Assembly: GCA_963971305.1 (NCBI GenBank)
Contig: OZ020314.1
Coordinates: forward strand, 1,674,001 to 1,738,000
DNA: 64,000 nt
DNA from: Arcuatula senhousia
Taxonomy: Eukaryota > Mollusca > Bivalvia > Mytilida > Mytilidae
Direction: 5' to 3'
The position numbers and the translations under genes are program-made. The notes under the pieces were generated by a model. It was not told where the DNA came from. It made no database searches and saw nothing but the letters and a program-made list of their open reading frames with translations. Below are positions 27,839 to 63,554 of the stretch, in pieces (the first letter of the stretch is position 1; each line of letters starts with the position of its first letter).

Positions 27839-27961
27839 GGATGGAACGTCATCGTTCTTTTTGTCAACAGAAATGCCAAAGGAAGAAATGACAGAATTAT
27901 GATTGTTGATTATTTCCTCCTTTGACAGTGTTGTTGCTGTATATGTGGTGCTTTTGCTAGT

Positions 27962-28825: not shown

Positions 28826-28876
28826 TTTAGTGCGAATGTGATGAATCCCGAGAGGTTGTTGGATAGACGAAAGCAG

Positions 28877-42864: not shown

Positions 42865-43025
42865 AGACAAAACCGGAAGACAAAAAATCATCACAACAAA
42901 ACAAACCACATAACATCATAAAACACACACACATAACAACAAAACCGCATTCAGCAACGCGAACTCAAGTCGAAACGAGAGTGAACGCAGGTGCTCCGGA
43001 AGAGTAAGCAGTTCCTGCTTGCTAT
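42865..43025 (-). repeat. Penelope terminal sequence, fragment 2 of 3
   Basis: AGACAAAACCGG through GCAACGCGAACTCAAGTCGA to TAAGCAGTTCCTGCTTGCTA matches 26490-26645. It is interrupted after CTAT (43022-43025) by the LTR retrotransposon. Confidence 0.85.
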
Positions 43026-43261
43026 TATTGCAGTTTTATATGTGGGCCTAGTGTGATGCATGGGACGTTAACATAACTTATGGTTACCTGACATTATCCC
43101 TGAGTTCACTCAATGACTGTCAAGACTCTAATATTCGGAGCTTCAGAAGGTGCGTCCGCTGGCTTCGAAGATCAGAATGGTAACAACCTTCCCACAATTC
43201 AATCGTCGTCACTTCCGGTTAGGCTGTTTCAATTATCCCCCTTTTCCCGCAATCTCCAACA
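43026..43261 (-). repeat. LTR (3' in element sense), 236 bp
   Basis: Almost identical to 53978-54213. Differences are G/A in CAGAATGGTAAC versus CAGAATAGTAAC, and C/T in TTCCCACAATTC versus TTCCCATAATTC. In sense orientation it begins TGTTGGAGATTGCGGG and ends GCAATA, so the end is not the usual CA. Confidence 0.95.
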
Positions 43262-43275
43262 CTCTCCTCCATTTT
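43262..43275 (-). other. Polypurine tract
   Basis: In sense orientation AAAATGGAGGAGAG lies directly before the 3' LTR, the expected plus-strand priming site. Confidence 0.75.
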
Positions 43276-43896
43276 ATTGAAAAAGAGTTGATCCTATATA
43301 TTGTATTGTTTAGAATTTCCATGAGGTGATGTTTGTAATGGTTCCAATTGTAGACGAACTAAATAAAATTTCAGTTAATGCAGCGAAGGATGTGATGATT
43401 AGTTTGTCTAATAGAGTTGAATACTAGGTGTCAGTACGCAGGTAGGTATCTGTGGATACAACTTTGTTGAAAGAAAATCCAGAGTAAATTAATACAAACG
43501 AAATGCTTTAAATGTTCAAGGTAGTCCATGTACTTGTAGAGTACATCAAAAGAAACAAGGTCGTTTCACTGTCTGCTACCTAAGGCCAACATAGCCGGCG
43601 CTGTAGGCAACATCCAGTTCCCCGTAATAGTCAGGACACAACAGATTAAAACAAAACGATTCCATTGTCCGTTACCTAAGGCCAACATAGCCGGCGCTGT
43701 AGGCAACACACAACCTCCACATAATAATGGCACACATCAAATAAAAACAAGTAATTAGCACAAACAAATGTTCCTTGGAAAAATATATACAATCCACACC
43801 ATCTTTTTCCTCTGATGATGATCAGTAAAAGTTATATAGTAAAAGTTAAAAACATTGATTAATAACAACAACATTCTCCTCTAGCACATACACAGT
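43276..43896 (-). other. 3' untranslated region of the LTR element with a 96-bp duplication
   Basis: Two copies of a ~96-bp unit (about 43562-43640 and 43659-43740) each carry GGCCAACATAGCCGGCGCT (43584-43602 and 43680-43698) flanked by CTGCTACCTAA/CCGTTACCTAA and TGTAGGCAACA. Otherwise non-coding. Confidence 0.7.
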
Positions 43897-45165
43897 CTAC
43901 TTCCTGTTATATATGCGGTCAACGTTAGTGGATGTCGTGACAGCCACCTCTTGTAACGACACATTTAATACCCTGGCAATTTCCTCGGCAACGTAGTTGA
44001 CTACATAGGGTGAAGATGCTTGACCCTGGAATTTGATGTGGGGAGAGTCGGACTCCAAAACTAAATTCTCTAATCCCACGGTTCGGACGAATTTGATGAT
44101 ATCTGCTGATTGCCGGTTAAAGATGAAGGGAGTAATGCCGAAAACTATGTTTGAGAAGTTGATGGTAGCTGATCTATAAACTTGAAAGGTACTCAGAAAG
44201 CAATGCCAATGGATGGGGTGGTCAGCGGGTACGAATTTGTCTAAGGAGGCCAAAAGTTGATAATGCAAGTCTACATCTCCACGGCAGTGTAGGATAACAG
44301 GTAGCTTAGCATCGACCGCCAGACGTAACTGGGCTTCCAAGTGACGGACTTGCTTCTCAATGTCTGTGGGGCGTGAACTGTCTGTGGTGTCCAACCCACA
44401 CTCTCCAACTGCCACAGTCCTGGAGGCCTTCAGCAAGTGTCTTAAATCACCCATCAACTTCTCCAGAGCCTTCTCCGATGATGAAAATACTACCCGAGGG
44501 TGAATTCCATAGGAAAACCGGTACTCTGCTGTCTGTCTCATGTTGCTCCGCTGTTGGGCTGACGGGAACTTATCTGGAAAGCAGAAGTTAGCCACGGCAA
44601 GGTAAAGTTGTGTCTGGAACCGCCCAGTTTCCAACATGTCAAGTTCAGTCAGGCCAACATAGCCGGCGCTGGACCGAAACATATCTAGGTGGAAATGGGC
44701 GTCAGCTATGGCGATCAGAGGATCCTCCTGGAAAGGGGTGGCGATAATCAGGCCTAGAGGATCTCTCCTGTCCATGGAGGAACGAATGGCAAGCTGATAT
44801 GCTGGAGTAAGGCGTGACACTACTTTGATGAAAATCTTCCAGTGTAGAAGTGACAGGATACCAAAACTCCGTGCTGACTCGTAAGGAGAAATTCCAGCCT
44901 GTGACAGGAAGCCGTTGTACTGAACAAACTGCTGGGCTCTCTGTTGTTCTTCTTGGTTGAAGGACAGGAGTTGGGTGCAGACCTGTGGTGGCATAAGTGT
45001 GTTGATTAAATCCACCAATTCCTCAGGCGAATTAAATTCCAAACAGTTGTAGATCTGGAACAAACACCCATTCATCAGCTGGGGCCACTGGTTAGTTCTT
45101 CTATCCAACCTGTACCTGCTACCCTCATCGTTATCTGGGTGCACCTCCTTCATATGGGTCTCCAA
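43897..45165 (-). CDS. TatD-family metal-dependent nuclease encoded by the LTR element
   Basis: 422 codons as counted from TTG 45165; the true start lies upstream across a frame break. A C2H2 finger (C-x2-C-x12-H-x4-H, 45139-45204) sits across this nominal start. A helical region follows to about residue 150. The TatD TIM-barrel signature then appears in order: DAHFHLD (H157, H159), YGIHPR (219-224), VGECGLD (E255), ILHCRG (H293), HWHCF (H321) and LESDSPH (D373). All metal-binding positions expected for TatD appear kept. TatD enzymes are Mg-dependent DNases acting on 3' ends or abasic sites. In a retroelement one could imagine cDNA end trimming or a repair function; that is speculation. The stop is TAG 43897-43899. 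It lies inside the LTR boundaries, downstream of pol. Confidence 0.85.
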   Translation of the reverse strand: METHMKEVHPDNDEGSRYRLDRRTNQWPQLMNGCLFQIYNCLEFNSPEELVDLINTLMPPQVCTQLLSFNQEEQQRAQQFVQYNGFLSQAGISPYESARSFGILSLLHWKIFIKVVSRLTPAYQLAIRSSMDRRDPLGLIIATPFQEDPLIAIADAHFHLDMFRSSAGYVGLTELDMLETGRFQTQLYLAVANFCFPDKFPSAQQRSNMRQTAEYRFSYGIHPRVVFSSSEKALEKLMGDLRHLLKASRTVAVGECGLDTTDSSRPTDIEKQVRHLEAQLRLAVDAKLPVILHCRGDVDLHYQLLASLDKFVPADHPIHWHCFLSTFQVYRSATINFSNIVFGITPFIFNRQSADIIKFVRTVGLENLVLESDSPHIKFQGQASSPYVVNYVAEEIARVLNVSLQEVAVTTSTNVDRIYNRK

Positions 45166-45569
45166 GGCTGGTACATGACGGAAAGCCGTGCAACAAGACC
45201 AGCAGGCCAGGTGGGGGTTCCAAAACCACGGGAGATGGAAGAATGCATGACGTCCTGGATTATTCTGTTTTCCCCACAGATGAGACAGTATGACCCTCGT
45301 GTCTTCTGGTTCTTCACCACCACAACTCGAATGTCACCATCACCCTCTGGAGGATCTACCTTTCCTGGTGGAGTACTAGCTGGTACCTCTACCCTGTCTG
45401 GTTGCAAGTTGGATTCTGCAATCACCTCCTCCTCTATGACTTCCTCCTCTATCACAACTTCCTCCTCATAGTTCAGTTCTTCTTCCAAGGATCTTTGCAT
45501 TTCTGTGAAAAGAGTAAACAAACATTCCTCTCCGGGGACTTCATTGCATGAAGGCCCCGCAGAAGTCAT
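45150..45569 (-). CDS. N-terminal acidic and zinc-finger part of the TatD protein (other frame)
   Basis: It starts at ATG 45569 (MTSAGPSCNEVPGEECLF), then has a very acidic stretch of E-rich repeats (EEEVVIEEEVIEEEV) and a proline-rich part. A CLICG zinc-binding pair near 45285 follows. The frame then runs out of register. Downstream coding sense (histidine- and cysteine-rich, leading into the C2H2 finger and the TatD domain) continues in the frame of 43897-45165. I infer one protein broken by an indel between about 45230 and 45290. The end as listed (MYQPWRPI) is out-of-frame sequence. Alternatively a frameshift could be programmed, but no slippery heptamer is obvious. Confidence 0.7.
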   Translation of the reverse strand: MTSAGPSCNEVPGEECLFTLFTEMQRSLEEELNYEEEVVIEEEVIEEEVIAESNLQPDRVEVPASTPPGKVDPPEGDGDIRVVVVKNQKTRGSYCLICGENRIIQDVMHSSISRGFGTPTWPAGLVARLSVMYQPWRPI

Positions 45570-46096
45570 TAAGTGTTAAATGTAGTGCTAATATATTTGT
45601 AAATGGATATACTTAATAGTTTTTTAGGGTTATTAATTTTCATTGTTTTGTTGTATTGGTCTCGAATAACTTGTGTCTTTTTTTTATGAACGTATATTGC
45701 CAAAATTAATTCACTAGAGGAGCAAACATTTTAAAATTATGCAAAAAAACTAGACAACTATCTACACATTGCAAAAAAAAACAAAACAATAATGATAATA
45801 ATAATAACTAACGCGTTCCCTTTTATATTATAACAAGTGTTAAAAATGCACATAGATATAATACCTACATGCAAACATTTTTCATACATTCATTACAAAC
45901 ATATTTTACTCAATAAGTTACAGTGTTAACTTATTAAGCAACCAAAACAACAAACAAACAATAAAAGCTAACAAAAAAAATTTTTTTTATTTTTATTTGG
46001 AGGATAGTTTAATATAAACTTCCTTTATCCTATCTTGTTTTTTTTTATATCATTTTACATTTCTTAAATAAAACGTTAAAAACTTCTGACTTTTGA
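45570..46096. other. AT-rich spacer between pol tail and TatD gene
   Basis: 527 bp of AT-rich non-coding sequence with poly-A/T runs. In sense orientation it separates the pol tail stop from the nuclease ATG. It could hold a splice acceptor or internal promoter for a subgenomic mRNA; nothing specific was recognised. Confidence 0.4.
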
Positions 46097-46495
46097 CTAT
46101 TCTGACATTACATAGTCTTTCAGATAAGAAGGTGGTCTCCTGATCCTAACTGACTCTGTTCTATTTTTGTCATGGCCATTGTCAAATGTTGCTATATTCT
46201 CATCTGGACCCTCATCTAGCTGGTAACAAAAGGTTTCATCCAGATCACCTAATTTTGTCAGTTCATCAAGATGATGCAGTAGCAGAGGCGACGGCGGATC
46301 CGCTTCCCCATCACTCGAATCAGTTTCGCTGGTCGCATCTTTGTACATGTCATCTATTTGGGTAGAGGCCATTAGCTGTCCATTTATCATTGACACCAGT
46401 TCAGGATCCTCTTCCTGACTCAGAACAGCACTTGAATCATCTTCGGAAAATGAATCCAAGGCATTCGATGAAACCCCAATCTTCTTGTGTACCAC
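46097..46495 (-). CDS. Acidic C-terminal tail of pol, shifted frame
   Basis: It overlaps the end of the 46437-50405 frame. It is rich in D, E and S, and ends RIRRPPSYLKDYVMSE, resembling the basic 'RRPPxYLxDYV' end of many Ty3/gypsy pol proteins. The frame connects to pol at a run of eight C residues (G on the plus strand near 46506-46515). This is therefore probably the true C terminus, displaced by a homopolymer indel. The ATG at 46495 need not be used. Confidence 0.7.
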   Translation of the reverse strand: MVHKKIGVSSNALDSFSEDDSSAVLSQEEDPELVSMINGQLMASTQIDDMYKDATSETDSSDGEADPPSPLLLHHLDELTKLGDLDETFCYQLDEGPDENIATFDNGHDKNRTESVRIRRPPSYLKDYVMSE

Positions 46496-49400
46496 TTTGG
46501 TCCATCTGGGGGGGGTCTCTATCTTCGCACAGCTTCAACTGGTCATGGTGAATCGTCAACACTTTTTTCCTCCCTTGTATCTGATATAGGACAGGGGACA
46601 ATACCTTAACAACTACATAGGGTCCTTGCCATATTGGTTTAAGTTTCTTGCACTGACCTACTTTAGTGGCTGGGTTCAGTCTGTAAACAAGGTCCCCAAC
46701 TTGATAGGTTTTTTGGTGCAATGTTAAATCATAGTCACGCTTTTGTCGCATCTGGGCAGTCAGTAAAGCTTCCCTGGCAACTTGATATACTTGGTGAAGA
46801 TGATTCTGCAGGTTAACCACAAAACTGGGGGTATCTAAAGCCTTACAACTTAGCTTTGGCACTCCAAGTATCAAGTCTATTGGCTGGTTGACTTCTCGTC
46901 CTAACATCAACATATTTGCTGAAAACCCCGATTGCTTATTGTAGCATGACCTTATTGATCTGGCAAGCAACTGTAGATTTTCGTCCCACCTTCTTTGCTT
47001 TCCCTTTATGAAACAACGAACAGCACTCATTATTACCGCATTGTATCGCTCGACTTGACCATTGGAGCGAGGCCTGTATGGTGTTGTGCGGGTCTTTGTT
47101 ATCTCCAACAATCTGCATAGTTCTTTGAACAGTTTTCCATCAAAGTTCTTTCCCTGGTCTGTGTGAATTTGTAACGGACAGCCAAATCTTGCAAAAAAGT
47201 TATCTACCGTGACCCTTGCAATTGTTTCAGCATGCTGATTAGGAAGTGGATAAAATTCAACCCATTTGGTGAATTGATCAATGACAGCCAAAATATATTT
47301 ATTTCCTTGTTCACTTTCCACCAAAGGTCCAAGTATGTCCATATGTACTCGTTCCATGGGCACTCCCGCATGAAATTGTCCCAGAGCCCCTTTAGCCTTT
47401 CTATTTGTCCCTTTATTCAGACTGCATGTTTTACATGTTCTTACATAGAGATTAACATCGTTTCTCATCTTATGCCAAATAAATCTTTGTTTTATCCTAT
47501 CCAATGTCTTATCTCTTCCAATATGACCCGAAGTTTTGGTGTCATGGCATAACTTCATTACTTCTTCCTTAAGATTTCTGGGAACAAACAGTAAAAGTTT
47601 GGAACCACCCGAACAATGCCACGAGTACATCAAACAGCCCTCGACCAGTGATAATTGTTGTCGGCAACTCCACCAATGTTTGACTGCGGCACTTGATAAA
47701 TGTAGTTCTACCACAGCAGGTTCTGTAGTAGACCTCAGCCACCCCATGAGGATTTTAAGATCTGGATCAGCTTCCTGTTTCTCAGCCATCTCTTGAAGGC
47801 TTAAACCCTCCAACCAGTTGGCCAAGTAGTCATCATGATTATCCTTCTCACCCTCCTGGTGGCCAACATAGCCGGCGCTACCAGAAAGCTGAGAGGAAAC
47901 ATCATCCAACACACTGTGATTTGCAGTATCTCGTGACTCCTCCCCCTCCTGGTGGCCAACATAGCCGGCACTACCAGAAGGCTGGGAGGAACCAATCACG
48001 AGGCTGCAATCTGCTGGATCCTCTTCCTGGCTGATAGCCCGAACCACCAGTGGACCAATATCATCCACCTCTTCCTCAAAACTCCTCCATTGTCGGTGCA
48101 CCCTCGTACAGTAGATACAACCACCACAGGGTAAGGTTTTAAGTTCTGCCCCGGCAAAGTAATTATCGCAAGGCTCCACTGTATCTGGAATGCGAGACAA
48201 GCTGTCAGCATTGGTATGCTTTTTCCCACTTCGATGTAAAATTTTCATGTCATATTGTGACAGCTCCTCCATCCATCTTGCCAATTGTCCTTCCAGATTC
48301 TTGAATCTCATTAACCAGATAAGACTGTGGTGATCTGTTCTTACCATAAATTGGCGTCCCAAGAGGTAATTCCTAAACTGTCTGGTAAATGTAACCAAAG
48401 CTAACAACTCTTTTCTGGTGGTACAGTAGCGTTTTTGCGCTGGAGCTAAAACTTTACTGGCATAGCCAATTACAAATTCCTTTCCATCATGAACCTGCAG
48501 AAGTTCTGCCGCAACAGCAATATCAGACGCATCTGTATCCAAGATGAAGGTTTTTTCAGGAGACGGAAAATGTAAGGTGGCGGCATTAACTATGGTTTCT
48601 TTTATTTTCTCAAAGGCTTCTAGGTGTTCTTTCCTCCAATCAAATTTTGCATTTTTCTTGGTGAGTGCATGAAGAGGATAAGCTAACGTTGACAGATTTG
48701 GTATATGGTCACGGTGGTAATTAGCGAAACCTAGAAAAGACTGCACTTGCTTTTTCGTTGTAGGAATTGGCCACTTCTGTACTGTCTCAATATTTTCTGG
48801 ATTTATAGAGATTCCCTGTTCTGATATCAATTTGCCTAAATAAGCTACCTCTTTCTGGAAAAGACTACACTTCTTGGGTTTAAGCTTTAAGTTATTATCT
48901 TGGAATCTTTTGATAACAGCTTCTAGGTTGTCCAAGTGATCTTCAAAGTCTTTACCCAACACTATGACATCATCTAAATAAGCTAAACACTGCGACCAAG
49001 TGAGACCGGACAAAATCAGCTGCATGACCCGTTGGAAGAAGGCTGGACTGTTACAAAGACCAAAGCTTAACCGGACATGTTCGAACAGCCCATATTTGGT
49101 TATGAAAGCTGTCTTATGTCTGTCGTCAGGATGTATTTCAAATTGGTAATACCCAGCTGACATATCCAAACAACTCATGTACTTTGTCTCTTTTAGTTGA
49201 TCTATGCAGGACTCTATTCTTGGTAGTGGGAAGGCGTCCTTGCGGGTCACACTATTGAGCTTACGGTAATCAATACAATAACGTATTTTTCCGTCACGTT
49301 TGCGGCATATCACTGGGGCAGCAGCCCATTCAGATGAAGAAGGTTGAATAATTTTTCTATCTAGAAGGTCTTGTATGTGTTTTTCCTCCTCCTTTTCCAA

Positions 49401-50405
49401 TCCCATTGGTGTTCTTCTTAGTCCTTCCTTTGTTGGAGCAGCTTCACCAGTTTCAATCCGGTGTTGAATTCTGGTGAATTGGCCAATATCCATGTCATCT
49501 TTGGAAAAAGTTTCTTGATATTTTAACAAAAGATTGGCCAGCTGTTGGCTTTGTTGTTCATTAAGATGCTTCTTGGATCTCTCAAATAAATCTTTCAAAT
49601 GAGAGGGCATCTCTTGGGTATTTTCCATTTTCACTTGCCTAACATTAATTTGCTCTTTAGGTTGTTCTGGATCTTCCTCCAATACTTCCTCAACGTTATC
49701 AACCTCCACGGCTGTACCAATAAGCTTATCTTTCTTGAGGGTAACAAAGGTATCTGAAAAGTTTTTGAGCACAATTGGCACTTCCTTTTCACCCCTTACT
49801 ACCATGTGAGGCATCACTATCCTTTCTAAATCAGACATGGGTTGAATGCATACATCTTCGCAGCAAGGTTGATCTAGTTTAGCTGAGCACTGGACAGTAG
49901 TTTGTGGTGGAATGACAAGTCTCTTACTAAGTTTCACCCTCCTGATGGTACTTTCTAGCCCATTTTTCCGTAATCCAATGGCATAGATATTCTCTCCTTT
50001 CACAACAACGGAAAATTCCCCAATGTCTAGCAAAGCTCGAATATGGTGCAGCAAGTCCAACCCCAATATCACCGGGTCTCTGATGTCCCCCACCAAAAGG
50101 CGCCATCGTGTTTCTGTTGGACCAATCTTGAACATGGCTTTTCCCCCAGCTTGTACAGGAATACTATTTCCATTGCCTGCCCCGTTCAAGTTAAACCACT
50201 CTCCTAGAGGCATAGTTTTATCTAGTTTCCTTGCAAAACTCCTGCTAATGATGGTCGCATCTGAACCGGAGTCGGCTACTGCATTAATTCGTACCCCATT
50301 GATGGTATTTGGAATTATCAAATCTATCGTCTCTTTTCCCTTGTATACCTTCCTCGTCTGGGGTTCTGGTTTCAATGGTATGCTATCATGGTCCCTACCC
50401 TCCAT
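46437..50405 (-). CDS. pol: Ty3/gypsy pol: protease, RT, RNase H, integrase
   Basis: From ATG 50405 the protein has 1322 codons; the frame is open further upstream to the gag overlap. Domains in order: aspartic protease (ADSGSDATII, D45); RT with CIDYRKLN and YLDD at residues 476-479; RNase H (DTDAS near 621, RTDHH); an inserted segment with a 31-residue tandem duplication carrying SGSAGYVGHQEGE twice; integrase zinc finger (CHDT..GHIGR, C-x2-C in CKTCSL); and the integrase core MDILGP, HTDQG and NGQVERYN with D-D-35-E spacing. The enzyme set copies the RNA and inserts the cDNA. After the C8 run the listed frame reads out of register, so the last ~30 residues are not genuine. Catalytic residues look intact. 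Confidence 0.95.
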   Translation of the reverse strand: MEGRDHDSIPLKPEPQTRKVYKGKETIDLIIPNTINGVRINAVADSGSDATIISRSFARKLDKTMPLGEWFNLNGAGNGNSIPVQAGGKAMFKIGPTETRWRLLVGDIRDPVILGLDLLHHIRALLDIGEFSVVVKGENIYAIGLRKNGLESTIRRVKLSKRLVIPPQTTVQCSAKLDQPCCEDVCIQPMSDLERIVMPHMVVRGEKEVPIVLKNFSDTFVTLKKDKLIGTAVEVDNVEEVLEEDPEQPKEQINVRQVKMENTQEMPSHLKDLFERSKKHLNEQQSQQLANLLLKYQETFSKDDMDIGQFTRIQHRIETGEAAPTKEGLRRTPMGLEKEEEKHIQDLLDRKIIQPSSSEWAAAPVICRKRDGKIRYCIDYRKLNSVTRKDAFPLPRIESCIDQLKETKYMSCLDMSAGYYQFEIHPDDRHKTAFITKYGLFEHVRLSFGLCNSPAFFQRVMQLILSGLTWSQCLAYLDDVIVLGKDFEDHLDNLEAVIKRFQDNNLKLKPKKCSLFQKEVAYLGKLISEQGISINPENIETVQKWPIPTTKKQVQSFLGFANYHRDHIPNLSTLAYPLHALTKKNAKFDWRKEHLEAFEKIKETIVNAATLHFPSPEKTFILDTDASDIAVAAELLQVHDGKEFVIGYASKVLAPAQKRYCTTRKELLALVTFTRQFRNYLLGRQFMVRTDHHSLIWLMRFKNLEGQLARWMEELSQYDMKILHRSGKKHTNADSLSRIPDTVEPCDNYFAGAELKTLPCGGCIYCTRVHRQWRSFEEEVDDIGPLVVRAISQEEDPADCSLVIGSSQPSGSAGYVGHQEGEESRDTANHSVLDDVSSQLSGSAGYVGHQEGEKDNHDDYLANWLEGLSLQEMAEKQEADPDLKILMGWLRSTTEPAVVELHLSSAAVKHWWSCRQQLSLVEGCLMYSWHCSGGSKLLLFVPRNLKEEVMKLCHDTKTSGHIGRDKTLDRIKQRFIWHKMRNDVNLYVRTCKTCSLNKGTNRKAKGALGQFHAGVPMERVHMDILGPLVESEQGNKYILAVIDQFTKWVEFYPLPNQHAETIARVTVDNFFARFGCPLQIHTDQGKNFDGKLFKELCRLLEITKTRTTPYRPRSNGQVERYNAVIMSAVRCFIKGKQRRWDENLQLLARSIRSCYNKQSGFSANMLMLGREVNQPIDLILGVPKLSCKALDTPSFVVNLQNHLHQVYQVAREALLTAQMRQKRDYDLTLHQKTYQVGDLVYRLNPATKVGQCKKLKPIWQGPYVVVKVLSPVLYQIQGRKKVLTIHHDQLKLCEDRDPPQMDQSGTQEDWGFIECLGFIFRR

Positions 50406-50576
50406 GTCACCAGGGCCAGCATTGCCGACACTAGGTGCAGCATTGTGAGCAGGAACCGGTACCGGACTGTAGTTATCCCCACTCTTTGGGTGTAGGCCAA
50501 CATTGCCGGCGCTAACACCGCAAGGAGAGGAAATGTTTGAAGTGATAGGCGGTTGACCTGTATATGCAGTACGGAC

Positions 50577-50615
50577 CAGGGAACGGTCTACTTCCCTGTT
50601 CCCTGACCATTTAAA
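50577..50615 (-). promoter_or_regulatory. Candidate -1 ribosomal frameshift signal between gag and pol
   Basis: In sense orientation the heptamer TTTAAAT (plus 50609-50615) has the X-XXY-YYZ form, with TTA AAT in the gag frame, and lies just before the gag TAG (50588-50590). The pol frame is exactly -1 and is open across the site. Downstream, CAGGGAAC (50598-50605) and GTTCCCTG (50577-50584) can form a perfect 8-bp stem with a 13-nt loop. The spacer is only 3 nt, shorter than usual. Confidence 0.7.
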
Positions 50616-51154
50616 GGTTTATTTGGCGACAGAGATTTTTTATTCGGACACTGGTTTGCGTAATGTCCTTTCTCAGAGCAGCTAAAGCAGACGACGTCTC
50701 TTACTGGACTTCTGCCTCGGTTTGGTGATGGAGACCTTGATCTGAGTCCATTATTGAAGCTTGGGGTGGACAAAATGTTGAGTATTTTATTGACATTTGT
50801 CTCTACTCCTCCCATTCTTTCACTCAGCTTTTCTATGTTCTCAGAATTCTTTGCTACTTGAGTTTCAATACTTGATTGACGTGGTGGTTTTCCAGGTTTA
50901 TGATTAATCTTCCTAATTGTCTCGCTGTCACTATCATCACTTCCATCACTAAGGATCTGAGGTTGTTCTTCGAACTGGACTTTTCTTACTTCTGGTTTCT
51001 TGTTTCCCAGTAATAGCCGATGATTGTACATGGCACTCTTAACATATCCCAATGCCTGGTCTAATTTCTGTGGATTTTTATCCATTGCCGATAGGGCTGC
51101 TTTAACATCGTGTACCCCTTTCAAAAAAGATTCCACTGCCATATCCTCAATCAT
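50588..51154 (-). CDS. gag: gag, C-terminal nucleocapsid part
   Basis: The frame is open upstream of 51154 to about 51300. It contains MIEDMAVESFLKGVHD (end of the capsid-like region), a linker rich in K, P and S, and one CCHC zinc knuckle, CFSCSEKGHYANQCP (C-x2-C-x4-H-x4-C). It ends NGQGTGK at TAG 50588-50590, a few codons after the candidate slippery site. It joins the preceding part only after a shift at a run of six A residues (sense) near 51285. Confidence 0.85.
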   Translation of the reverse strand: MIEDMAVESFLKGVHDVKAALSAMDKNPQKLDQALGYVKSAMYNHRLLLGNKKPEVRKVQFEEQPQILSDGSDDSDSETIRKINHKPGKPPRQSSIETQVAKNSENIEKLSERMGGVETNVNKILNILSTPSFNNGLRSRSPSPNRGRSPVRDVVCFSCSEKGHYANQCPNKKSLSPNKPLNGQGTGK

Positions 51155-51228
51155 GTCCTCTGGCAGTTCTGTGTACCCGTCTGTGGCTAGCTCCTGGACT
51201 CTCTCTGCAAAGTCGTCAAGGCTTTCAT

Positions 51229-52089
51229 CTAATTGCTGCTTGGCACTGTGTAATTGCCTTCTAATGGAATGAGGCAGATCTTTTTTCCAAATCTTACAGA
51301 CATCTTATCTACCAACTGAGTGAAACTTTGTTGAACAGACGCTGGTCTGGTACTGAAATATTTCAGAGCCTTACCTCTCAAACAGAGTATAAAGTTGTCT
51401 AACATTTGGTTCTCGTCCCACTCAAATCGTTTAGCCGTGTGTTCAAATTGGATGTAATATGCCTTCCAATCAGTGTTACCGTCAAAGGAGGCTAACCTTG
51501 GAATCTGTGGCTGCTGGACAGAGGAAGGTTTCACATTTGTAGCAACATTAGAACTCTTAGCCAATTTAACCGGTTTAGTCTCCATCTTCTTTCCCGATAA
51601 CCAACTTTCTTCATAACTTTCTCCGCAACTAGTGCTACCATAATTTTGCTCTGGACGTCTTACATAGCGACTTCCTGGTGTTATGTCGTCTATTGCTCTT
51701 TTAGTTTTTGAAAATTGAAGTTCCTTTTCCAATTTGCTAACTTTTCCTTCCTTTTCTTGTAATTCTTCCATTTGATTCTCAATTCTTCTATTTAATTCAG
51801 TAACTGTCTCTTCAAGGTCTATGTTAGCATTCTGTGCCAAAGTTAGAGTAGTCTGGAGATCTTTTAATTGACATTTCAAACTATTAACATCGGTATGGTA
51901 GTCACTCAATTTAATATTTGCCTGTTGTATTTCCTTCTCCAGAACTTGGGATGCTTTTTCTATTCCCTGCAACTTATCAATCTCTGCTACTAAGCGAAGT
52001 ATTTCGTCATCCTTCTCTTTTAATTGTTCCCCATACTTTTTCCTCATTTCACTGAATCTATCATCATCATACTTTAATTTGGACTCCAT
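51229..52089 (-). CDS. gag: gag, coiled-coil and capsid-like part
   Basis: A long coiled coil (about residues 1-130, K/E/L-rich with heptads such as VTELNRRIENQMEELQEKEG). A linker follows, then a retrotransposon gag-like capsid segment: PRLASFDGNTDWKAYYIQFE, DENQMLDNFILCLRGKAL and FTQLVDKMSVRFGKK. After the homopolymer near 51285 the listed frame is out of register (CLIPLEGNYTVPSSN is not genuine). The upstream frame break is at 52075-52089. Confidence 0.85.
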   Translation of the reverse strand: MESKLKYDDDRFSEMRKKYGEQLKEKDDEILRLVAEIDKLQGIEKASQVLEKEIQQANIKLSDYHTDVNSLKCQLKDLQTTLTLAQNANIDLEETVTELNRRIENQMEELQEKEGKVSKLEKELQFSKTKRAIDDITPGSRYVRRPEQNYGSTSCGESYEESWLSGKKMETKPVKLAKSSNVATNVKPSSVQQPQIPRLASFDGNTDWKAYYIQFEHTAKRFEWDENQMLDNFILCLRGKALKYFSTRPASVQQSFTQLVDKMSVRFGKKICLIPLEGNYTVPSSN

Positions 52090-52475
52090 TTCATTTTCTC
52101 ATGTGTCATTTGATCAAGATATTGAGTCATCTGGTTAACTTGATCTGCCAGTTGAGTCTTCTCCTTTTCAAGGGTCACCACGTTCTGTTTTGCTATCAGC
52201 AATTCTGTTTTACATGAATTCAATTGCTGTTTCAACTTGTCTAGATCTTCTGCTTGGTCAGTTGGCTCTTCTCCTAGAGTCACCCAATCTGCTGTAAATA
52301 ACGGGTCCCAGATAGTGGAAGGCACCCCATCAATAAGTTTTAGATTTTCTAATGTAAGCCTTCCCTTCTCCTCTCTGGCAGCAATGATTTTCTTGGCCCT
52401 TGCTTCACCAATGTCTCTTATGGTCATCAGTTCCTCCTTTGAAGCCTTGTTAATATTGACCTTTCTCCCTGACAT
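52074..52475 (-). CDS. gag: gag N-terminal part with ComEA-like helix-hairpin-helix
   Basis: ATG 52475 starts MSGRKVNINKASKEEL, followed by MTIRDIGEARAKKIIAAREE and KGRLTLENL. The VNIN-AS-EEL...I-GIG/DIGEARAKKII..R pattern is the helix-hairpin-helix DNA-binding motif of ComEA and related proteins, unusual at the start of a gag. The rest is coiled coil running into the next part. The frame stops at TAA 52074-52076 beside an indel; the next frame continues the coiled coil. Confidence 0.8.
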   Translation of the reverse strand: MSGRKVNINKASKEELMTIRDIGEARAKKIIAAREEKGRLTLENLKLIDGVPSTIWDPLFTADWVTLGEEPTDQAEDLDKLKQQLNSCKTELLIAKQNVVTLEKEKTQLADQVNQMTQYLDQMTHEKMKWSPN

Positions 52476-53977
52476 TTTAATAATTTATTTCAATTTAATT
52501 AGATTTATTACTTTATTTAGTTTATGTTACAAAGGAAAGCATGAAACAAAACAAGTCCCGTTTTAATATTCAATTACGGCCAACATTGCCGGCTCAATAA
52601 CTGAATGTATTTATTATTTATTTATTTTACCAGTTGTTTAATTTTATCTTATAAAATTTTATCAAAAAATTCCGATCAAAACAAATACCGTTTAGTATTT
52701 AATTATGGCCAACATTGCCGGCTCATAGATTGAATTTTTATAGTATAGTTTAATTTCAGTAAATGCCAACTTAGCCGGCAAAACTGAAATGAAAAAATCC
52801 GAAATTGTTAAGAACTATTTATCTATTTCAAGAAAAAATTTATTGGTCAACAGTAACAACTATTTTATGAATAATCAATACTGCAATCAACACTGCTTTA
52901 TATCAGTCATAATAAAAGCCAGCCTTTACTATTTTATGATTCTCAATTTGATTTTTTGTTGGTGTTAAAGATATTAATTGAATTTTATAATACTTTAATT
53001 TACTATGAGTTAGCTTCCTCCTTTTTTTTCCTCTTTTTATTTACACGAGACTACACAATTCTTTTTTTTCTTTTTTAACCGCGCACAGAAGCACAAAGCC
53101 CAACTTAGCCGAACTAATATGCTACTGTGTTAAACTGTGAGATAGCACTTTTTCCTGTATAATTTGGACAGAAAGAAACTTAAATTTTTATGTGTTGAGT
53201 GTCTTGCAGTTTAAACAGTCAAGTCCAGCATAGCCGATCTTTGACTGTATTTGGAACCTTATATGTCCTTATACCTTAATGCCAAGGGTGAAAGTCTTTC
53301 AAAAAATTATCCCCCAAAATTTTTGACTCAGAAAGTTGATGTATAAATCAATCAAAAAATTTCCCCAATAATAGATAACAGCTAATAATTAAGACTTTCA
53401 ACCAAGTTCATATGAAATGAACACAAGAAAACATAGGGAGGGGGCTTTTTATTCTGTAAAAGAATGTGTAGTCAAATGTTTGTGTAATTGCACAGAAACA
53501 ACACAAATTTATTTCAATATAAATACACCTAAAATATATCTAATCAGGCACTTTATATTTATTCTAATCTCAGAAATATATGTAAATTATATATGTGTAT
53601 GTGTTTAAAAAAATATAAATGTGTATATATGTTTCAAAAAATATAAATGTGTATATGTTTCAACAATCAACAAAATCACATCACTGAAAATAGCTAAATC
53701 AGTGAACTGAAATTTCACTCCAATTTTACATACATGTACTGAGTGAAAAAACCAAAATTATCACCTCAATGACAAAATAAGGTCAGTGAAATGAAAATAT
53801 ACACAATAAATCACGTCACTGAATGAAAAAATAACAGTGAAATGACCAGAAAAATATAGTCAGGCCAGCAAAAATATAAATATTTTTTTTTTCCTGTATC
53901 GCGACGAAAACCCCGCGAAAATAATCCCGTGCAACTAATGTCAAATATTAAAGTCAATTTTTAACACCTGACACCAA
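52476..53977 (-). other. 1.5-kb leader of the LTR element
   Basis: Non-coding, AT-rich, between the primer site and gag. It holds five copies of the recurrent motif (52578, 52707, 52764, 53098, 53222; the last three diverged). A ~129-bp local duplication accounts for the first two (TACGGCCAACATTGCCGGCT and TATGGCCAACATTGCCGGCT). Confidence 0.75.
53960..53976 (-). other. Primer-binding site
   Basis: In sense orientation TTGGTGTCAGGTGTT follows the 5' LTR directly. The TGG start fits the CCA end of a tRNA. The primer may be a leucine-type tRNA, as in other bivalve gypsy elements, but I could not verify that. Confidence 0.7.
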
Positions 53978-54213
53978 TATTGCAGTTTTATATGTGGGCC
54001 TAGTGTGATGCATGGGACGTTAACATAACTTATGGTTACCTGACATTATCCCTGAGTTCACTCAATGACTGTCAAGACTCTAATATTCGGAGCTTCAGAA
54101 GGTGCGTCCGCTGGCTTCGAAGATCAGAATAGTAACAACCTTCCCATAATTCAATCGTCGTCACTTCCGGTTAGGCTGTTTCAATTATCCCCCTTTTCCC
54201 GCAATCTCCAACA
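53978..54213 (-). repeat. LTR (5' in element sense), 236 bp
   Basis: Partner of 43026-43261, with two substitutions. It is followed by the target duplicate CTAT and then the resumed Penelope terminus (AGCACACCTGTCACGTTGCC). Confidence 0.95.
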
Positions 54214-54265
54214 CTATAGCACACCTGTCACGTTGCCAAAGATCGATTTAGTGTTGGTCGAATCC
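54214..54265 (-). repeat. Penelope terminal sequence, fragment 3 of 3
   Basis: CTATAGCACACCTGTCACGT then TGCCAAAGATCGATTTAGTG continues exactly where 43025 stops, as in the intact copy at 26640-26690. Confidence 0.85.
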
Positions 54266-59740: not shown

Positions 59741-61837
59741 TCATAGTGGTGTCAAAGTAGGTGCTTTAACGGCTCTTCTTAAATACTCGTTGACTCTGGG
59801 TACGATTGCGTCTTTCCAGGCCCTTGAATCTGAGAGGTGAGGGTAGAAAAACAGGATATACCTCATCATGATGTTCTTTCTTTCTGGCTGGAGCTCGATC
59901 TTATTAAGTTTTCCACCACCGTAGTAACTGTATTGGAGACGCAGGTTGTCTGATGTAAATAGTTCAGGAAATAACTTTTCCAGAATCTTAGTGGCAAAGT
60001 GGCCTGGACAGTTGGACTGTTTAGCAATACCATTCAAGTCAGTCATGCTGATACGGAGATGTTCTGGAACGTCCATGAAAGGATAAGTTTCTGTTGTGGG
60101 GTCATGATGCTGTTGTTGGTAGTATGAAGTAGCAGGTGTGGATGTCTTAGATGACTGGTGAAGACTAAGAAGTTGTGCTAGCATGCTCATCATGCTTTTC
60201 TGGTTGGCTATAAGGGTTGCATTGGAGGACTCTAAAGCTGCGATTCGTTGTATCATGTTGTCATTTCTGGTTTGTTGCTGTGGTGATGGTGGAATGTCTG
60301 GGTAAATGAAGTGCTGTGAGTGGGTAGCTTGTGGCCGGAAGGGACTAAAGGCAGACTGCTGGTGTGTGTAGTTAAATGGGCTGTCTGGTTGAGTCTGTGG
60401 AAGTTGGAGGTATGGCAGAGGTACTGGTGTGTGGGTGGGCTGCTGAGGTACTGGTGTGTGGGTGGGCTGCTGAGGAACTGCTGTGTGTGTGGGTGGGTGA
60501 GGAACTGCTGTGTGTGTGGGTGGGTGAGGTACTGGTGTGTGGGTGGGTGAGGTACTGGTGTGTGGGTGGGTGAGGTACTGGTGTGTGGGTGGGTGAGGTA
60601 CTGGTGTGTGGGTGGGCTGCTGAGGAACTGCTGTGTGTGTGGGTGGGTGAGGAACTGCTATGTGTGTGGGTGGGTGAGGTACTGCTGTGTGTGTGGGTGG
60701 CTGAGGAACTGCTGTGTGTGTGGGTGGGTGAGGAACTGCTGTGTGTGTGGGTGGGTGAGGTACTGCTGTGTGTGTGGGTGGCTGAGGAACTGCTGTGTGT
60801 GTGGGTGGGTGAGGTACTGGTGTGTGGGTGGGTGAGGTACTGGTGTGTGGGTGGGTGAGGTACTGGTGTGTGGGTGGGTGGGTTAGGTACTGGTGTGTGG
60901 GTGGGTGAGGTACTGGTGTGTGGGTGGGTGAGGTACTGGTGTGTGGGTGGGTGGGTGAGGTACTGGTGTGTGGGTGGGTGAGGTACTGGTGTGTGGGTGG
61001 GTGAGGAACTGCTGTGTGGGTGGGTGGGTGAGGTACTGGTGTGTGGGTGGGTGAGGTACTGGTGTGTGGGTGGGCTGCTGAGGAACTGCTGTGTGGGTGG
61101 GTGGGTTAGGTACTTGTGTGTGGGTGGGTGAGGTACTGGTGTGTGGGTGGGCTGCTGAGGAACTGCTGTGTGGGTGGGTGGGTTAGGTACTTGTGTGTGG
61201 GTGGGTGAGGTACTGGTGTGTGGGTGGGCTGCTCAGGAACTGCTGTGTGGGTGGGCTGCTCAGGAACTGCTGTGTGGGTGGGCTGCTCAGGAACTGCTGT
61301 GTGGGTGGGCTGCTCAGGAACTGCTGTGTGGGTGGGTGGGTTAGGTACTTGTGTGTGGGTGGGTGAGGTACTGGTGTGTGGGTGGGCTGCTGAGGAACTG
61401 CTGTGTGGGTGGGTGGGTTAGGTACTTGTGTGTGGGTGGGTGAGGTACTGGTGTGTGGGTGGGCTGCTGAGGAACTGCTGTGTGGGTGGGTGGGTTAGGT
61501 ACTGGTGTGTGGGTGGGCTGCTCAGGAACTGCTGTGTGGGTGGGTGGGTTAGGTACTTGTGTGTGGGTGGGTGAGGTACTGGTGTGTGGGTGGGCTGCTG
61601 AGGAACTGCTGTGTGGGTGGGTGGGTTAGGTACTGGTGTGTGGGTGGGCTGCTCAGGAACTGGTGTGTGGGTGGGCTGCTCAGGAACTGCTGTGTGGGTG
61701 GGCTGCTCAGGAACTGCTGTGTGGGTGGGTGACTGTGGTTCTGGACTCTGGGGTAATGGATCAGGCTGTTCAGTTGTATTTCTGTATTGGATAACAGACG
61801 GAGGTAGATTTGTCCGTTTGATAACTGACGCTTTTTT
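59741..61837 (-). CDS. Last exon of BEN-domain gene, with proline-rich variable repeat
   Basis: In sense direction the exon begins after TTTTTCTTTTCAG at 61837 (KKASVIKRTNLPPSVIQYRN), then runs through a P/T/H/V/Q-rich repeat (THTAVPQQP, THTPVPEQP) coded by 61735-60418. A glutamine/proline linker follows, then a BEN domain in 59741-60256 (DVPEHLRISMTDLNGIAKQS, FATKILEKLFPELFTSDNL, LQPERKNIMMRYILFFYP), stop TGA 59741-59743. BEN domains bind DNA or protein in chromatin and transcription contexts. The frame is the same on both sides of the repeat. Inside it, fifteen 23-bp units move the reading frame, and a TAA (61418-61420) interrupts it. So this allele, as read, is truncated unless the repeat is misassembled. 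Confidence 0.8.
60418..61735 (-). repeat. Coding VNTR built of 27-bp and 23-bp units
   Basis: On the plus strand, units such as GAGGAACTGCTGTGTGGGTG...CTGCT (27 bp) alternate with GAGGTACTGGTGTGTGGGTG+GGT (23 bp). I count fifteen 23-bp units, all others 27 bp. Each 23-bp unit shifts the frame by one, but fifteen restore it. All three sense frames are free of stops except where TTAGG units fall in one frame. The plus-strand ORFs (60320-61421) are shadows. Confidence 0.85.
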
Positions 61838-62375
61838 CTGAAAAGAAAAATACAACTTTATTATTCAATTATAAACATAAAATAAAAGATTCAATAAAGA
61901 AATTCAATAAAATACATAGAATACAGGAATATGTAATTCAACATAAAACTGAGATTACAGAAAAAAAATATATACACTTTACGACCTAATTTTCATGTTT
62001 TTTTGAAGATAAATTTCTTATTTAATATATTATTATTTTTTTAAATATGTTTTTTTTAATGTATTTGCGAGTTAAAATGGTTTATTTATTTTAATTCAAT
62101 TTGTGCTTGTGCATAGAGTTTTTTTTTAAATAACATTGAAAACAAATTTAAAGTGACATTTAACAAAATACATGTACTGTATATTGCAAGTGACCATAAT
62201 AAAAGTCATAATTGATCTGGAACAGGAAACAGACCATTGAAAATAGACCATAATCCATGACCTGATCTTGTTAATTGCAGATAAGTCATAAAGTTATCTA
62301 CTTCATATGGTGTCTTAAAATGATTGCGCTATTTTGACAATAAACAAAATTAATTTGACAATTTGCAAACAGCTT

Positions 62376-62409
62376 TATATAAGAAAGTATAAAATATCTA
62401 GTTCATTCA
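62376..62409 (+). promoter_or_regulatory. TATA box and CATTCA cap-like motif of the transposase gene
   Basis: TATATAAG at 62376-62383 (a second TATAAAATA follows at 62389) and CATTCA at 62404-62409, about 28 bp downstream, 12 bp before ATG 62421. PyATTCPu cap sites after a TATA box are typical of replication-dependent histone genes. Confidence 0.45.
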
Positions 62410-62420
62410 TAGTAAACAAT

Positions 62421-63554
62421 ATGCCGAAAGTCCAACACAGTTCTAAACTTCGCGTCATTGAGTTATACAGATTGGGATGGCGGCCGTATGCTATTCGCCG
62501 ACAACTTGATGATGAAAACCAACCAGTCACCAAAAGCAGCATACAGCATATAATCGACAACTACAAGTCTGGTCGCTTCCTTTTTGAAACTAACATTTCG
62601 TTACCTCAAATATCATTTAAAACCATTACGGACACAGACCTTTCTCTTATCGACAACGCCCTAGCCAACGATTGTAACCTGTCTGCCAGAGATATTCAAC
62701 AAATGCTTGACAGAAACGGAACCAGTGTATCCCTATCAACTGTAAGAAAAGCTATTGGTGCAGCAGGTTGGGTATCTACAGCCCCAAGATATTGCCAGCT
62801 TATTCGAGATGTCAATAAAGAGCTCCGAGTACAGTTTTGTCAAGACCTCATTGCCAGAGACGATAAATTCGAAGATGTCATTTTCAGTGATGAAACTACG
62901 TTACAACTACACGACAACAAAGTTGGGGCATATAGAAGAAAGCAATCCGCAGGACCAACTAACTGTAAACCCAAACATCCACTGAAACTACATGTATGGG
63001 GAGCCATTAGTAAAAGAGGTGCCACGCAACTTGTCATTTTTGATGGTATTATGAATGCTGCTTTTTTTGTGCCGGAAGTTTTGGAAGCTACACTTAAACC
63101 TTTTGTCGACACCGTTTACCCTGACGGGCACAGATTCCAACAAGACAACGACCCTAAACACACCTCTAAACTTGCAAAAACTTTCATGGAAGAGAATGGT
63201 ATAAATTGGTGGAAATGGCCCTCGGAATCTCACGATTTGAACCCGATAGAAATGGTGTGGAATCAACTCAAAAGATACGTTTCAAAAAGAAACCCGTCTA
63301 CTAAAGAAGAACTCGCCCAATACGTAGAAGAATTCTGGTTAACAGAAATGACACCTGAGAATTGTAGTAAATATATTGACCATATCTTCAAAGTTGCACC
63401 AGTTGTAATTGCAGTAAATGGAAAAGCGACGGCCGATATACCTCGAAGGTTATTCACAGAGAGTTCCAGGGAAAAGAGCTTCACCTACTTTCATGATAAG
63501 CTATGCGCACCCCAGCTTAGAGACAGATTGACTACGATGATGGCAGACCGATAA
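62421..63554 (+). CDS. Tc1/mariner-type transposase, intact
   Basis: ATG 62421 (MPKVQHSSKLRVIELY) is chosen over 62334 because a TATA box and cap motif lie between them; 377 residues. There is a paired-like N terminus with two helix-turn-helix regions (RLGWRPYAIRRQL; NLSARDIQQMLDRNG). The DDE domain has FSDET (D157), FQQDNDPKHTS (D242) and HDLNPIEMVWNQLKR (E277), giving the DD34E spacing of Tc1 elements. The enzyme would cut and paste DNA at TA sites. The frame has no stop or indel. I did not find terminal inverted repeats on either side, which is odd for a complete transposon. The gene lies antisense in an intron of the BEN gene. Domestication or a very recent insertion are both possible. 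Confidence 0.9.
   Translation: MPKVQHSSKLRVIELYRLGWRPYAIRRQLDDENQPVTKSSIQHIIDNYKSGRFLFETNISLPQISFKTITDTDLSLIDNALANDCNLSARDIQQMLDRNGTSVSLSTVRKAIGAAGWVSTAPRYCQLIRDVNKELRVQFCQDLIARDDKFEDVIFSDETTLQLHDNKVGAYRRKQSAGPTNCKPKHPLKLHVWGAISKRGATQLVIFDGIMNAAFFVPEVLEATLKPFVDTVYPDGHRFQQDNDPKHTSKLAKTFMEENGINWWKWPSESHDLNPIEMVWNQLKRYVSKRNPSTKEELAQYVEEFWLTEMTPENCSKYIDHIFKVAPVVIAVNGKATADIPRRLFTESSREKSFTYFHDKLCAPQLRDRLTTMMADR

What the first reader, a model, noticed from the sequence alone, without database searches (positions are those of the whole stretch)
43026..54213. LTR retrotransposon carrying a TatD-type nuclease with zinc fingers downstream of pol
Two 236-bp LTRs (2 differences), a CTAT target duplication, primer site and polypurine tract define the element exactly. 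Between pol and the 3' LTR lies a gene with an acidic N terminus, a C2H2 finger and a TatD barrel whose metal-site motifs (HxH, GEcGLD, HCR, HWHCF, ESDSPH) are all present. Ty3/gypsy elements usually carry nothing or an envelope-like gene there. A captured DNA repair/3'-end nuclease would be a new accessory function; I know of no described example, but cannot search.
Basis: partly seen in the sequence, partly recalled or inferred. Interest (0 to 1): 0.88.

Follow-up and report, generated by a model that had tools for sequence, protein, structure and literature searches.

The report
Retrotransposons carrying a TatD nuclease gene
A retrovirus-like jumping gene, in what is likely a mollusc genome, carries a gene for a predicted DNA- or RNA-trimming enzyme (TatD); dozens of related jumping genes in that genome carry it too and it is kept under selection, so it likely helps them copy themselves or escape their host.

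Summary
Window 43026-54213 is a Ty3/gypsy-type LTR retrotransposon (236-bp LTRs, 2 differences, ATAG/CTAT target duplication) with a TatD gene between pol and the 3' LTR. In this copy the TatD frame is broken.

It is not a one-off. Of the 103 integrase places scored as most like this one, at least 84 have a TatD gene 1.1-3.5 kb downstream on the same strand, including 6 of 6 copies of this family. TatD and integrase trees agree at depth, with one conflict. The TatD barrel is under purifying selection (dN/dS 0.16 over 12 pairs).

Two further facts raise the interest. At least two elements lost pol but kept gag and TatD, with identical LTRs. A three-copy Helitron family and two DUF6589 loci also have TatD behind their proteins. 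One copy lacks a precise GT-AG segment ending at the TatD start, so TatD is likely made from spliced RNA. Activity and role are inferred. The closest precedent is the DEDDy nuclease ORF3 of rotifer retrotransposons (PMC5408684).

The parts
53978..54213 (-). 5' LTR, 236 bp
   Evidence: direct repeat with 43026-43261, 2 differences
43026..43261 (-). 3' LTR, 236 bp
54214..54217 (-). target-site duplication ATAG, 5' side
   Evidence: flanks printed
43022..43025 (-). target-site duplication ATAG, 3' side
   Evidence: flanks printed
53965..53976 (-). primer-binding site (TGGTGTCAGGTG); tRNA-Leu by recall, not tested
   Evidence: sequence
43262..43275 (-). polypurine tract next to the 3' LTR
   Evidence: sequence
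52074..52475 (-). gag piece 1: helix-hairpin-helix domain (PF12836), then a coiled-coil-like stretch
   Evidence: E 3e-11 for PF12836
51229..52089 (-). gag piece 2 (coiled-coil-like; Retrotrans_gag below its cut-off)
50588..51154 (-). gag piece 3 with CCHC zinc knuckle (PF00098)
   Evidence: E 2.6e-5
46437..50405 (-). pol: aspartic protease, reverse transcriptase, RNase H, integrase
   Evidence: 94-98% identical integrases in 5 further copies
46097..46534 (-). acidic end of pol (...RRPPSYLKDYVMSE) in another frame in this copy
45503..45523 (-). pyrimidine-rich tract and CAG, splice acceptor-like, at the start of the conserved TatD frame
   Evidence: read by eye; the counterpart in a related family is the edge of a precise GT-AG gap; the automatic scan did not list such sites in the relatives
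45150..45575 (-). TatD gene, first part: acidic N terminus and first CxxC (other frame in this copy)
   Evidence: one frame with the rest in 3 of 6 family copies
43897..45333 (-). TatD gene, second part: rest of the two fingers, helical middle, TatD barrel (PF01026, residues 155-420 of the 422-aa ORF)
43584..43695 (-). two copies of the family's 16-mer GCCGGCTATGTTGGCC downstream of TatD

Best explanation
This is a Ty3/gypsy-type LTR retrotransposon that carries between pol and its 3' LTR a TatD nuclease gene, shared by most of its scored relatives in this genome and kept by selection; the protein is predicted to be a zinc-finger, metal-dependent 3'-end nuclease that would act on the element's own replication intermediates. 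Shown: position, linkage, deep co-divergence with integrase, purifying selection on the barrel, and conserved finger and metal-site residues. Likely: the protein is made from a spliced RNA, because an acceptor-like site at the TatD start recurs in the same codon phase, 7 of 10 loci have no ATG before the conserved acidic start, and one copy lacks a precise GT-AG segment ending there. Inferred: the fingers bring the nuclease to nucleic acid, and the barrel trims or repairs 3' ends of cDNA, or of RNA in RNA:DNA hybrids, before or during integration. Elements that lost pol but kept gag and TatD suggest that TatD works in cis or with Gag, whereas Pol can be borrowed.
For: Linkage: of 103 scored integrase places (2319 candidates), 79 have a listed TatD place on the same strand 1.1-3.5 kb downstream; the nearest listed TatD within 15 kb was never in another arrangement. 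Of 8 of the 24 others that I fetched, 5 also have TatD downstream. Co-divergence: the same deep branching of TatD and integrase over 11 elements. Selection: 12 disjoint pairs, 48 synonymous to 28 nonsynonymous, dN/dS 0.16, binomial p 9e-15; integrase 0.11 over 7 pairs. Conservation: C201, C204, H214, H219, C230, C233 of the fingers and D400, H402, H404, E501, D505, H539, H565, H567, E617, D619 of the barrel (numbering of P0003) are invariant in 16 of 16 proteins chosen for having the finger part. Fold: a Mytilus relative (P0008) models at mean pLDDT 81.6, pTM 0.58, and its best PDB matches are TatD DNases. Splicing: a C6 copy lacks exactly the 423 bp (GTGTGC...TTTCACAG) that a C7 sister has, and the 433 bp of a C2 sister, with 98.6-99.2% identical flanks. 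Cis retention: two pol-less elements with gag and TatD frames of 836/643 and 838/661 codons, 100% identical 258/259-bp repeats, TSDs ACAT and AAGT read from the flanks. Enzymology from papers: TatD proteins are 3'-5' exonucleases mainly on ssDNA, with AP endonuclease activity (PMC10085689, passages); TATDN2 is described as an RNA 3' exonuclease and endonuclease that resolves R-loops (PMC12709183, passages).
Against: No activity, transcript or protein was measured. Purifying selection shows that the protein matters, not what it does. Between families TatD nonsynonymous distance is about twice that of integrase in 5 of 7 comparisons, three times in one and lower in one. One pair (L015-L016) has 2 synonymous and 8 nonsynonymous differences, as expected of decay. 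L035 sits with different relatives in the two trees, and the tool warns of long branches in both. Two copies of one related family (L059, L060) have no TatD within 3 kb, and another element (L062) has a different ORF there, so TatD is dispensable for some relatives. The finger alignment is a chosen set: P0020 lacks the fingers, and the Helitron and DUF6589 TatDs (297-316 codons) are too short to hold them. Splicing: the GT-AG gap could be a deletion, since 2 bp (GT) are shared at its ends; the C7 acceptor has only 13 of 22 pyrimidines; an automatic scan asking for 11 of 14 listed none of these sites; the donor that would supply the start codon was not found; in the spliced order pol and TatD are in different frames.
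Confidence: 0.5

Rival explanations
1. TatD is a counter-defence enzyme: it would degrade or shorten host small RNAs or R-loop-associated silencing transcripts, so that the element escapes piRNA or siRNA control.
For: TatD also sits behind a Helitron protein and DUF6589 proteins, which fits a benefit that does not depend on reverse transcription. TATDN2 is described as acting on RNA 3' ends (PMC12709183, passages). TatD nonsynonymous distance exceeds that of integrase in 6 of 7 between-family comparisons.
Against: No positive selection was seen in the barrel (only whole-barrel dN/dS was computed). Nothing here links TatD to small RNAs. A general RNA exonuclease would not be specific.
Confidence: 0.25
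2. TatD repairs the element's cDNA: its AP endonuclease and 3'-exonuclease activities would clean abasic sites and damaged or mismatched 3' ends before integration.
For: AP endonuclease and 3'-exonuclease activity are reported for TATDN1, TATDN3 and E. coli TatD paralogs (PMC10085689, abstract and passages). The metal site is conserved in the aligned relatives.
Against: It would not explain TatD behind a Helitron as simply, and no damage signature was studied.
Confidence: 0.15
3. TatD is passive cargo: host TatD genes caught by chance between pol and the LTR, or elements that inserted beside host TatD genes.
For: Host genes are at times carried by LTR elements (established knowledge). The TatD frame is broken in 3 of 6 copies of this family.
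Against: At least 84 of 103 places have it in one position and orientation, the trees co-diverge at depth, and selection is strong. Chance linkage would give about 0.05 such cases among 103 (own arithmetic from 150 places in 1.04 Gb).
Confidence: 0.03
4. TatD replaces an envelope: the third gene helps movement between cells or hosts.
For: It occupies the env position and is likely expressed through splicing like env. The rotifer paper raises the same possibility for DEDDy and GDSL ORFs (PMC5408684, discussion read).
Against: No envelope match in Pfam. Of 10 proteins checked, the 19-residue hydropathy maximum passes 2.0 only in L022 and L025, at the very start of the stop-to-stop frame and probably upstream of the start codon; L028 (1.80) and L038 (1.66) slightly pass the customary 1.6 (recalled) within the body.
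Confidence: 0.04

Closest known systems
DEDDy-exonuclease ORF3 of bdelloid rotifer LTR retrotransposons (Vesta, Juno; PMC5408684)
   Same: A 3'-end nuclease encoded as ORF3 after pol; the same ORF type is shared with another class of element (Penelope-like there; apparently a Helitron and DUF6589 elements here).
   Different: DEDDy/RNase D fold against a TatD barrel with two zinc fingers. The rotifer ORFs are described as recent, missing from early branches, and without significant departure from neutrality (sections read). Here the gene is old, co-diverges with integrase at depth, is under purifying selection and is kept by at least two pol-less elements.
TATDN2/TATDN3 (Group II TatD, HxH motif)
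   Same: The barrel and HxH-type active site; a source names a Mytilus relative TATDN2.
   Different: Carried by mobile elements; an acidic N terminus and two C2H2-like fingers. The TatD chains found in the PDB are 254-301 residues, so barrels only. Whether the gene descends from host TATDN2 was not resolved.
Env-bearing Ty3/gypsy elements (errantivirus type) and retroviruses (from recall)
   Same: A third gene after pol, likely expressed from spliced RNA.
   Different: The gene is a predicted nuclease, not a membrane glycoprotein.
m6A demethylase domain in orchid Ty3/gypsy elements (PMC9289625, seen only in a search listing)
   Same: An enzymatic domain captured by a Ty3/gypsy element.
   Different: Plant element, other enzyme, described in the title as a recent acquisition.

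Membership tests
Ty3/gypsy LTR retrotransposon | paired LTRs with target-site duplication, primer site and polypurine tract | tested here: met
Ty3/gypsy LTR retrotransposon | gag with CCHC knuckle; pol in the order PR-RT-RH-IN | tested here: met
   domain coordinates
Ty3/gypsy LTR retrotransposon | placement in a named clade (Mag, CsRN1, mdg3 and so on) | not tested
   no named reference set was used; nearly all listed relatives are unnamed
TatD nuclease family | PF01026 above the curated cut-off over the whole domain | tested here: met
   135.5 bits against cut-off 27
TatD nuclease family | metal-binding motifs conserved | tested here: met
   all five motifs in the window; of 31 own-genome frames my simple patterns found GExGLD and E[S/T]DxP in 31, HxR in 28, HxH in 27, HxHCF in 24 (some misses are narrow patterns or cut frames); invariant in the 16
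TatD nuclease family | TatD TIM-barrel fold | tested here: met
   model of the relative P0008, not of the window's own protein
TatD nuclease family | 3'-5' exonuclease or AP endonuclease activity | not testable with these tools
   needs purified protein
Rotifer DEDDy-ORF3 retrotransposons | DEDDy exonuclease domain | tested here: not met
   TatD_DNase is the only match above its cut-off in 11 TatD proteins scanned
Rotifer DEDDy-ORF3 retrotransposons | nuclease ORF after pol, before the 3' LTR | tested here: met
   window; linkage
Rotifer DEDDy-ORF3 retrotransposons | same ORF type shared with another class of element | tested here: inconclusive
   TatD lies behind Helitron and DUF6589 proteins, but the ends of those elements were not mapped
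Env-bearing errantivirus-like elements | membrane glycoprotein after pol | tested here: not met
   no envelope match; hydropathy
TATDN2 (R-loop RNase) | HxH Group II motif | tested here: met
   DAHFH; grouping by motif from PMC10085689 passages
TATDN2 (R-loop RNase) | RNA activity on RNA:DNA hybrids | not testable with these tools
   needs assay

The most novel reading that the evidence does not exclude
The TatD gene is an exchangeable module of mobile elements: an old, selected, cis-acting nuclease that a whole Ty3/gypsy lineage depends on, that elements keep even after throwing away pol, and that a Helitron and DUF6589 elements have acquired as well, because it acts on something all of them share: free 3' ends, RNA:DNA hybrids or host silencing RNAs.
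Probability: 0.35. Interest if true: 0.9.

Novelty: new variant of a known kind. Interest (0 to 1): 0.8.

Why it matters
Retrotransposons are thought to need only gag and pol, with env as the usual extra gene. An old lineage in which most scored elements carry and preserve a nuclease of the DNA-repair type suggests a replication or defence step that standard models leave out. The pol-less gag-TatD elements give a natural experiment: what must be encoded in cis, and what can be borrowed. TatD behind a Helitron and behind DUF6589 proteins points to a need shared by unrelated elements. It would also warn annotators that many multi-copy 'tatD' or 'TATDN2' genes in mussels and other invertebrates may be mobile-element genes.

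Tried and rejected
Chance or one-off insertion: rejected by the linkage counts. Neutral cargo: rejected, apart from one decaying pair (L015-L016). Fusion of TatD to Pol in one protein: none of the 120 listed pol relatives (of 800) bears PF01026. TatD-bearing elements in viral contigs: single-protein scans found no relative for TatD or pol, and a family-alignment scan found 7 loci at 23-28% identity, not studied further. A wider protein search with the family alignment returned 12 proteins, 9 of them Mytilus; only the 7995 candidates sharing most words were scored. DUF6589 linkage beyond the two fetched loci: the family search (103 matches) did not list those two loci, so no count is given. The remaining 125 Helitron helicase places were not compared with the TatD list. 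Genome searches with TatD proteins did not complete (window protein; L027: 83; L010: 96; L019: 102); I used the PF01026 list instead. A splice donor near the gag start was looked for by eye and not found.

Counting limits: TatD places are the 150 scored of 273 candidates and integrase places the 103 scored of 2319; 16 of the 24 integrase places without a listed TatD were not fetched. dN/dS lists only pairs with dS under 1.5 and at least 3 synonymous differences (21 pairs); one search uses 12 disjoint pairs, not all on separate branches. Tree rows: one search left 14 near-identical copies out and the program dropped P0023; one search used 11 of the 21 elements with both genes. The 16 proteins were chosen for having the finger part.


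Full report
The element. Window 43026-54213 (minus strand) is an LTR retrotransposon: two 236-bp LTRs with 2 differences, a 4-bp target duplication ATAG, a primer site and a polypurine tract. Pfam finds an aspartic protease, reverse transcriptase, RNase H, integrase zinc finger and core, a CCHC knuckle in gag and, unusually, a helix-hairpin-helix domain at the gag N terminus. Between pol and the 3' LTR lies a TatD gene: acidic N terminus, two C2H2-like fingers, a helical middle and a full TatD barrel (E 2.8e-39). In this copy the gene is in two frames that part inside the first finger; the end of pol and gag also change frame. The nearest named proteins are 'tatD' of Mytilus coruscus and M. 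edulis, 40% identical over 99% of the 422-aa ORF. They have the same acidic, finger and barrel layout. An unnamed protein is closer, 54% over 71%.

Not a one-off. The host genome (1.04 Gb, unnamed) could be searched. It has 150 scored TatD matches out of 273 candidates, 15 of them with internal stops (my count). The search with the window's integrase scored 103 of 2319 candidates. In 79 of the 103, a TatD place lies on the same strand 1.1-3.5 kb downstream; the nearest listed TatD within 15 kb was never in another arrangement. I fetched the downstream 3 kb for 8 of the 24 unlinked places. Five have TatD on the same strand 1.5-1.8 kb downstream, some with frame breaks. Two copies of one family have none, and one has a different 488-codon ORF without a Pfam match. 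So at least 84 of 103 carry TatD. Among integrases at least 52% identical it is 47 of 48, the last not fetched; in the window's own family (94-100%) it is 6 of 6. Of those six TatD genes, three have an open 559-codon stop-to-stop frame and three are broken.

What lies before TatD. Of the first 20 loci fetched (taken by hand from the upper part of the list), 10 have gypsy pol in order upstream and 4 have gag without a pol match in the stretch. Two have a Helitron protein (its domains were scanned in one of them), 2 a DUF6589 protein, and 2 nothing that I recognised.

Age and co-inheritance. TatD barrels in these 20 loci are 26-42% identical to the window's, with integrases 49-63% identical where present. 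Trees of TatD and integrase over 11 elements share the deep order: window/L033/L035/L037/L038, then L028, then L022, then L013/L017 and L027. Some forks are weak, and the tool warns of long branches. One supported conflict exists: L035 joins L037/L038 in the TatD tree (98/99) and the window group in the integrase tree (82/94). In a quick tree with long branches the Mytilus proteins P0003, P0005 and P0008 fall among the element-borne TatDs. So they too are likely element genes or descend from them; that is an inference, since their surroundings could not be read.

Selection. Among 21 close pairs the TatD barrel has dN/dS 0.03-0.36. Over 12 disjoint pairs there are 48 synonymous and 28 nonsynonymous differences with 21.7% synonymous sites (dN/dS 0.16, binomial p 9e-15); integrase over 7 pairs gives 0.11. 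Between families synonymous sites are saturated or nearly so. In five of seven comparisons TatD nonsynonymous distance is about twice that of integrase; in L037-L038 it is three times, and in L035-L038 it is lower. The pair L015-L016 (2 to 8) looks like decay.

Conserved chemistry. In an alignment of 16 full-length proteins, from this genome, Mytilus and unnamed sources, chosen for having the finger part, both CxxC pairs, the first finger's two histidines and the barrel's motif residues are invariant; one histidine of the second finger is nearly so. P0020 lacks the fingers, and the Helitron and DUF6589 TatDs are too short to hold them. A model of the Mytilus relative P0008 (mean pLDDT 81.6, pTM 0.58) matches TatD DNases from bacteria and human TATDN1 and TATDN3. 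The DAHFH motif is of the HxH group that includes TATDN2 and TATDN3 (grouping from PMC10085689, passages).

Expression. In 8 of the 10 loci shown the conserved frame begins at a pyrimidine-rich stretch ending CACAG, GACAG or GCAG, in the same codon phase in all 8 (read by eye). The other two are L028, which has its own ATG, and L036. In 7 of the 10 there is no ATG before the conserved LEEE; the first in-frame ATG of the stop-to-stop frame lies at codon 86 (L033, L034), 142 (L030), 237 (L038) or 279 (L037). A stricter automatic scan did not list these acceptors. One copy (L036, C6) lacks exactly the segment between the end of pol and this site. Its sisters, with 98.6-99.2% identical flanks, have 423 bp (C7) and 433 bp (C2) there, starting GTGTGC and ending TTTCACAG. 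This is what reverse transcription of a spliced RNA would leave. A deletion using the 2-bp GT repeat is not excluded. In this spliced order TatD is in another frame than pol, so the normal donor probably lies elsewhere, and I did not find it. Other lineages (L011, L020, L026, L028) have an ATG near the start.

Elements without pol. Two loci (L020, L026) are LTR elements with 258- and 259-bp repeats that are 100% identical, target duplications ACAT and AAGT read from the flanks, a long gag frame and a long TatD frame, and no integrase, reverse transcriptase, RNase H or protease match at E 1e-3. L026 is 98% identical to L027, which has 4.8 kb, with pol, between gag and TatD. Recent copies thus moved with borrowed Pol but with their own gag and TatD. 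Retention could be chance over so short a time; L020-L021 differ by 6 synonymous and 4 nonsynonymous changes in the barrel.

Other element classes. L009 and L010 have TatD behind a Helitron protein (Helitron_like_N, PIF1, OTU in L010). All three near-identical copies of that helicase region (99-100%) have a TatD, in one case a partial match, about 2.55 kb downstream on the same strand (my arithmetic). L018 and L019 have TatD behind a DUF6589 protein. L009 and L018, the one row of each in the tree, group together (98% SH-aLRT). I did not prove that TatD lies within these elements' ends.

How it likely works. TatD enzymes trim 3' ends of ssDNA and RNA and cut at abasic sites (PMC10085689, PMC12709183, passages). 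I propose that the fingers bind nucleic acid and the barrel trims or repairs 3' ends of cDNA, or removes RNA from hybrids, at or before integration. Activity, substrate and location are untested. Counter-defence against host small RNAs is the main rival, and TatD behind a Helitron fits it well.

Known or new. Searches combined TatD with element terms and listed 4, 0, 1 and 3 papers; two searches sought captured nucleases (0 and 3 papers). No listed title is about TatD genes in transposable elements. Only PMC6962438 of these was opened, for one passage; the others were judged by title and the start of the abstract. The library lacks most subscription papers. The nearest precedent is the DEDDy ORF3 of rotifer elements (PMC5408684; abstract, section 3.3 and discussion read). 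The giant squid genome paper shows a TATDN2 gene in a legend, together with a pogo-like gene, among non-Hox genes of the Hox region (PMC6962438), perhaps another element-borne case.

Noticed in passing
window 43584, 43680, 44652, 47861, 47954 exact; 50495, 52578, 52707, 52764 with 1-2 mismatches (all minus strand): The 16-mer GCCGGCTATGTTGGCC recurs in the leader, pol (in frame), TatD (in frame) and 3' end of the element. Of 28 exact places in the 1.04-Gb genome, 25 lie in the six copies of this family, all in element sense, and 3 elsewhere; the reversed control has 0. It looks like a family-specific RNA or protein-binding signal; function unknown.
   Followed up: partly
window 52074-52475: A helix-hairpin-helix DNA-binding domain (PF12836, E 3e-11) at the N terminus of gag; this gag piece is also matched in L022 and L023.
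   Followed up: partly
L059, L060, L062: Relatives of this pol lineage without TatD: two copies of one family with no TatD in 3 kb, and one element with a 488-codon ORF bearing a possible finger and no Pfam match.
   Followed up: partly
L009, L010 (C10, C5) and C10:50125899: A three-copy Helitron family with OTU and a downstream TatD gene.
   Followed up: partly
L018, L019: Large DUF6589 proteins (1521 and 2244 codons) followed by a TatD frame of 309-316 codons.
   Followed up: partly
window 26714-29455 (minus): Reverse transcriptase-like ORF (RVT_1 below its cut-off) beside ORFs resembling a Penelope-like element with a GIY-YIG-like motif; Pfam does not confirm the GIY-YIG.
   Followed up: partly
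window 10590-13154 (+): nSTAND3 NTPase with tandem near-identical ankyrin repeats, an NLR-like protein.
   Followed up: no
window 62334-63554 (+) and 59741-60256 (minus): Tc1/mariner-type transposase (DDE_3) and a BEN-domain ORF.
   Followed up: no
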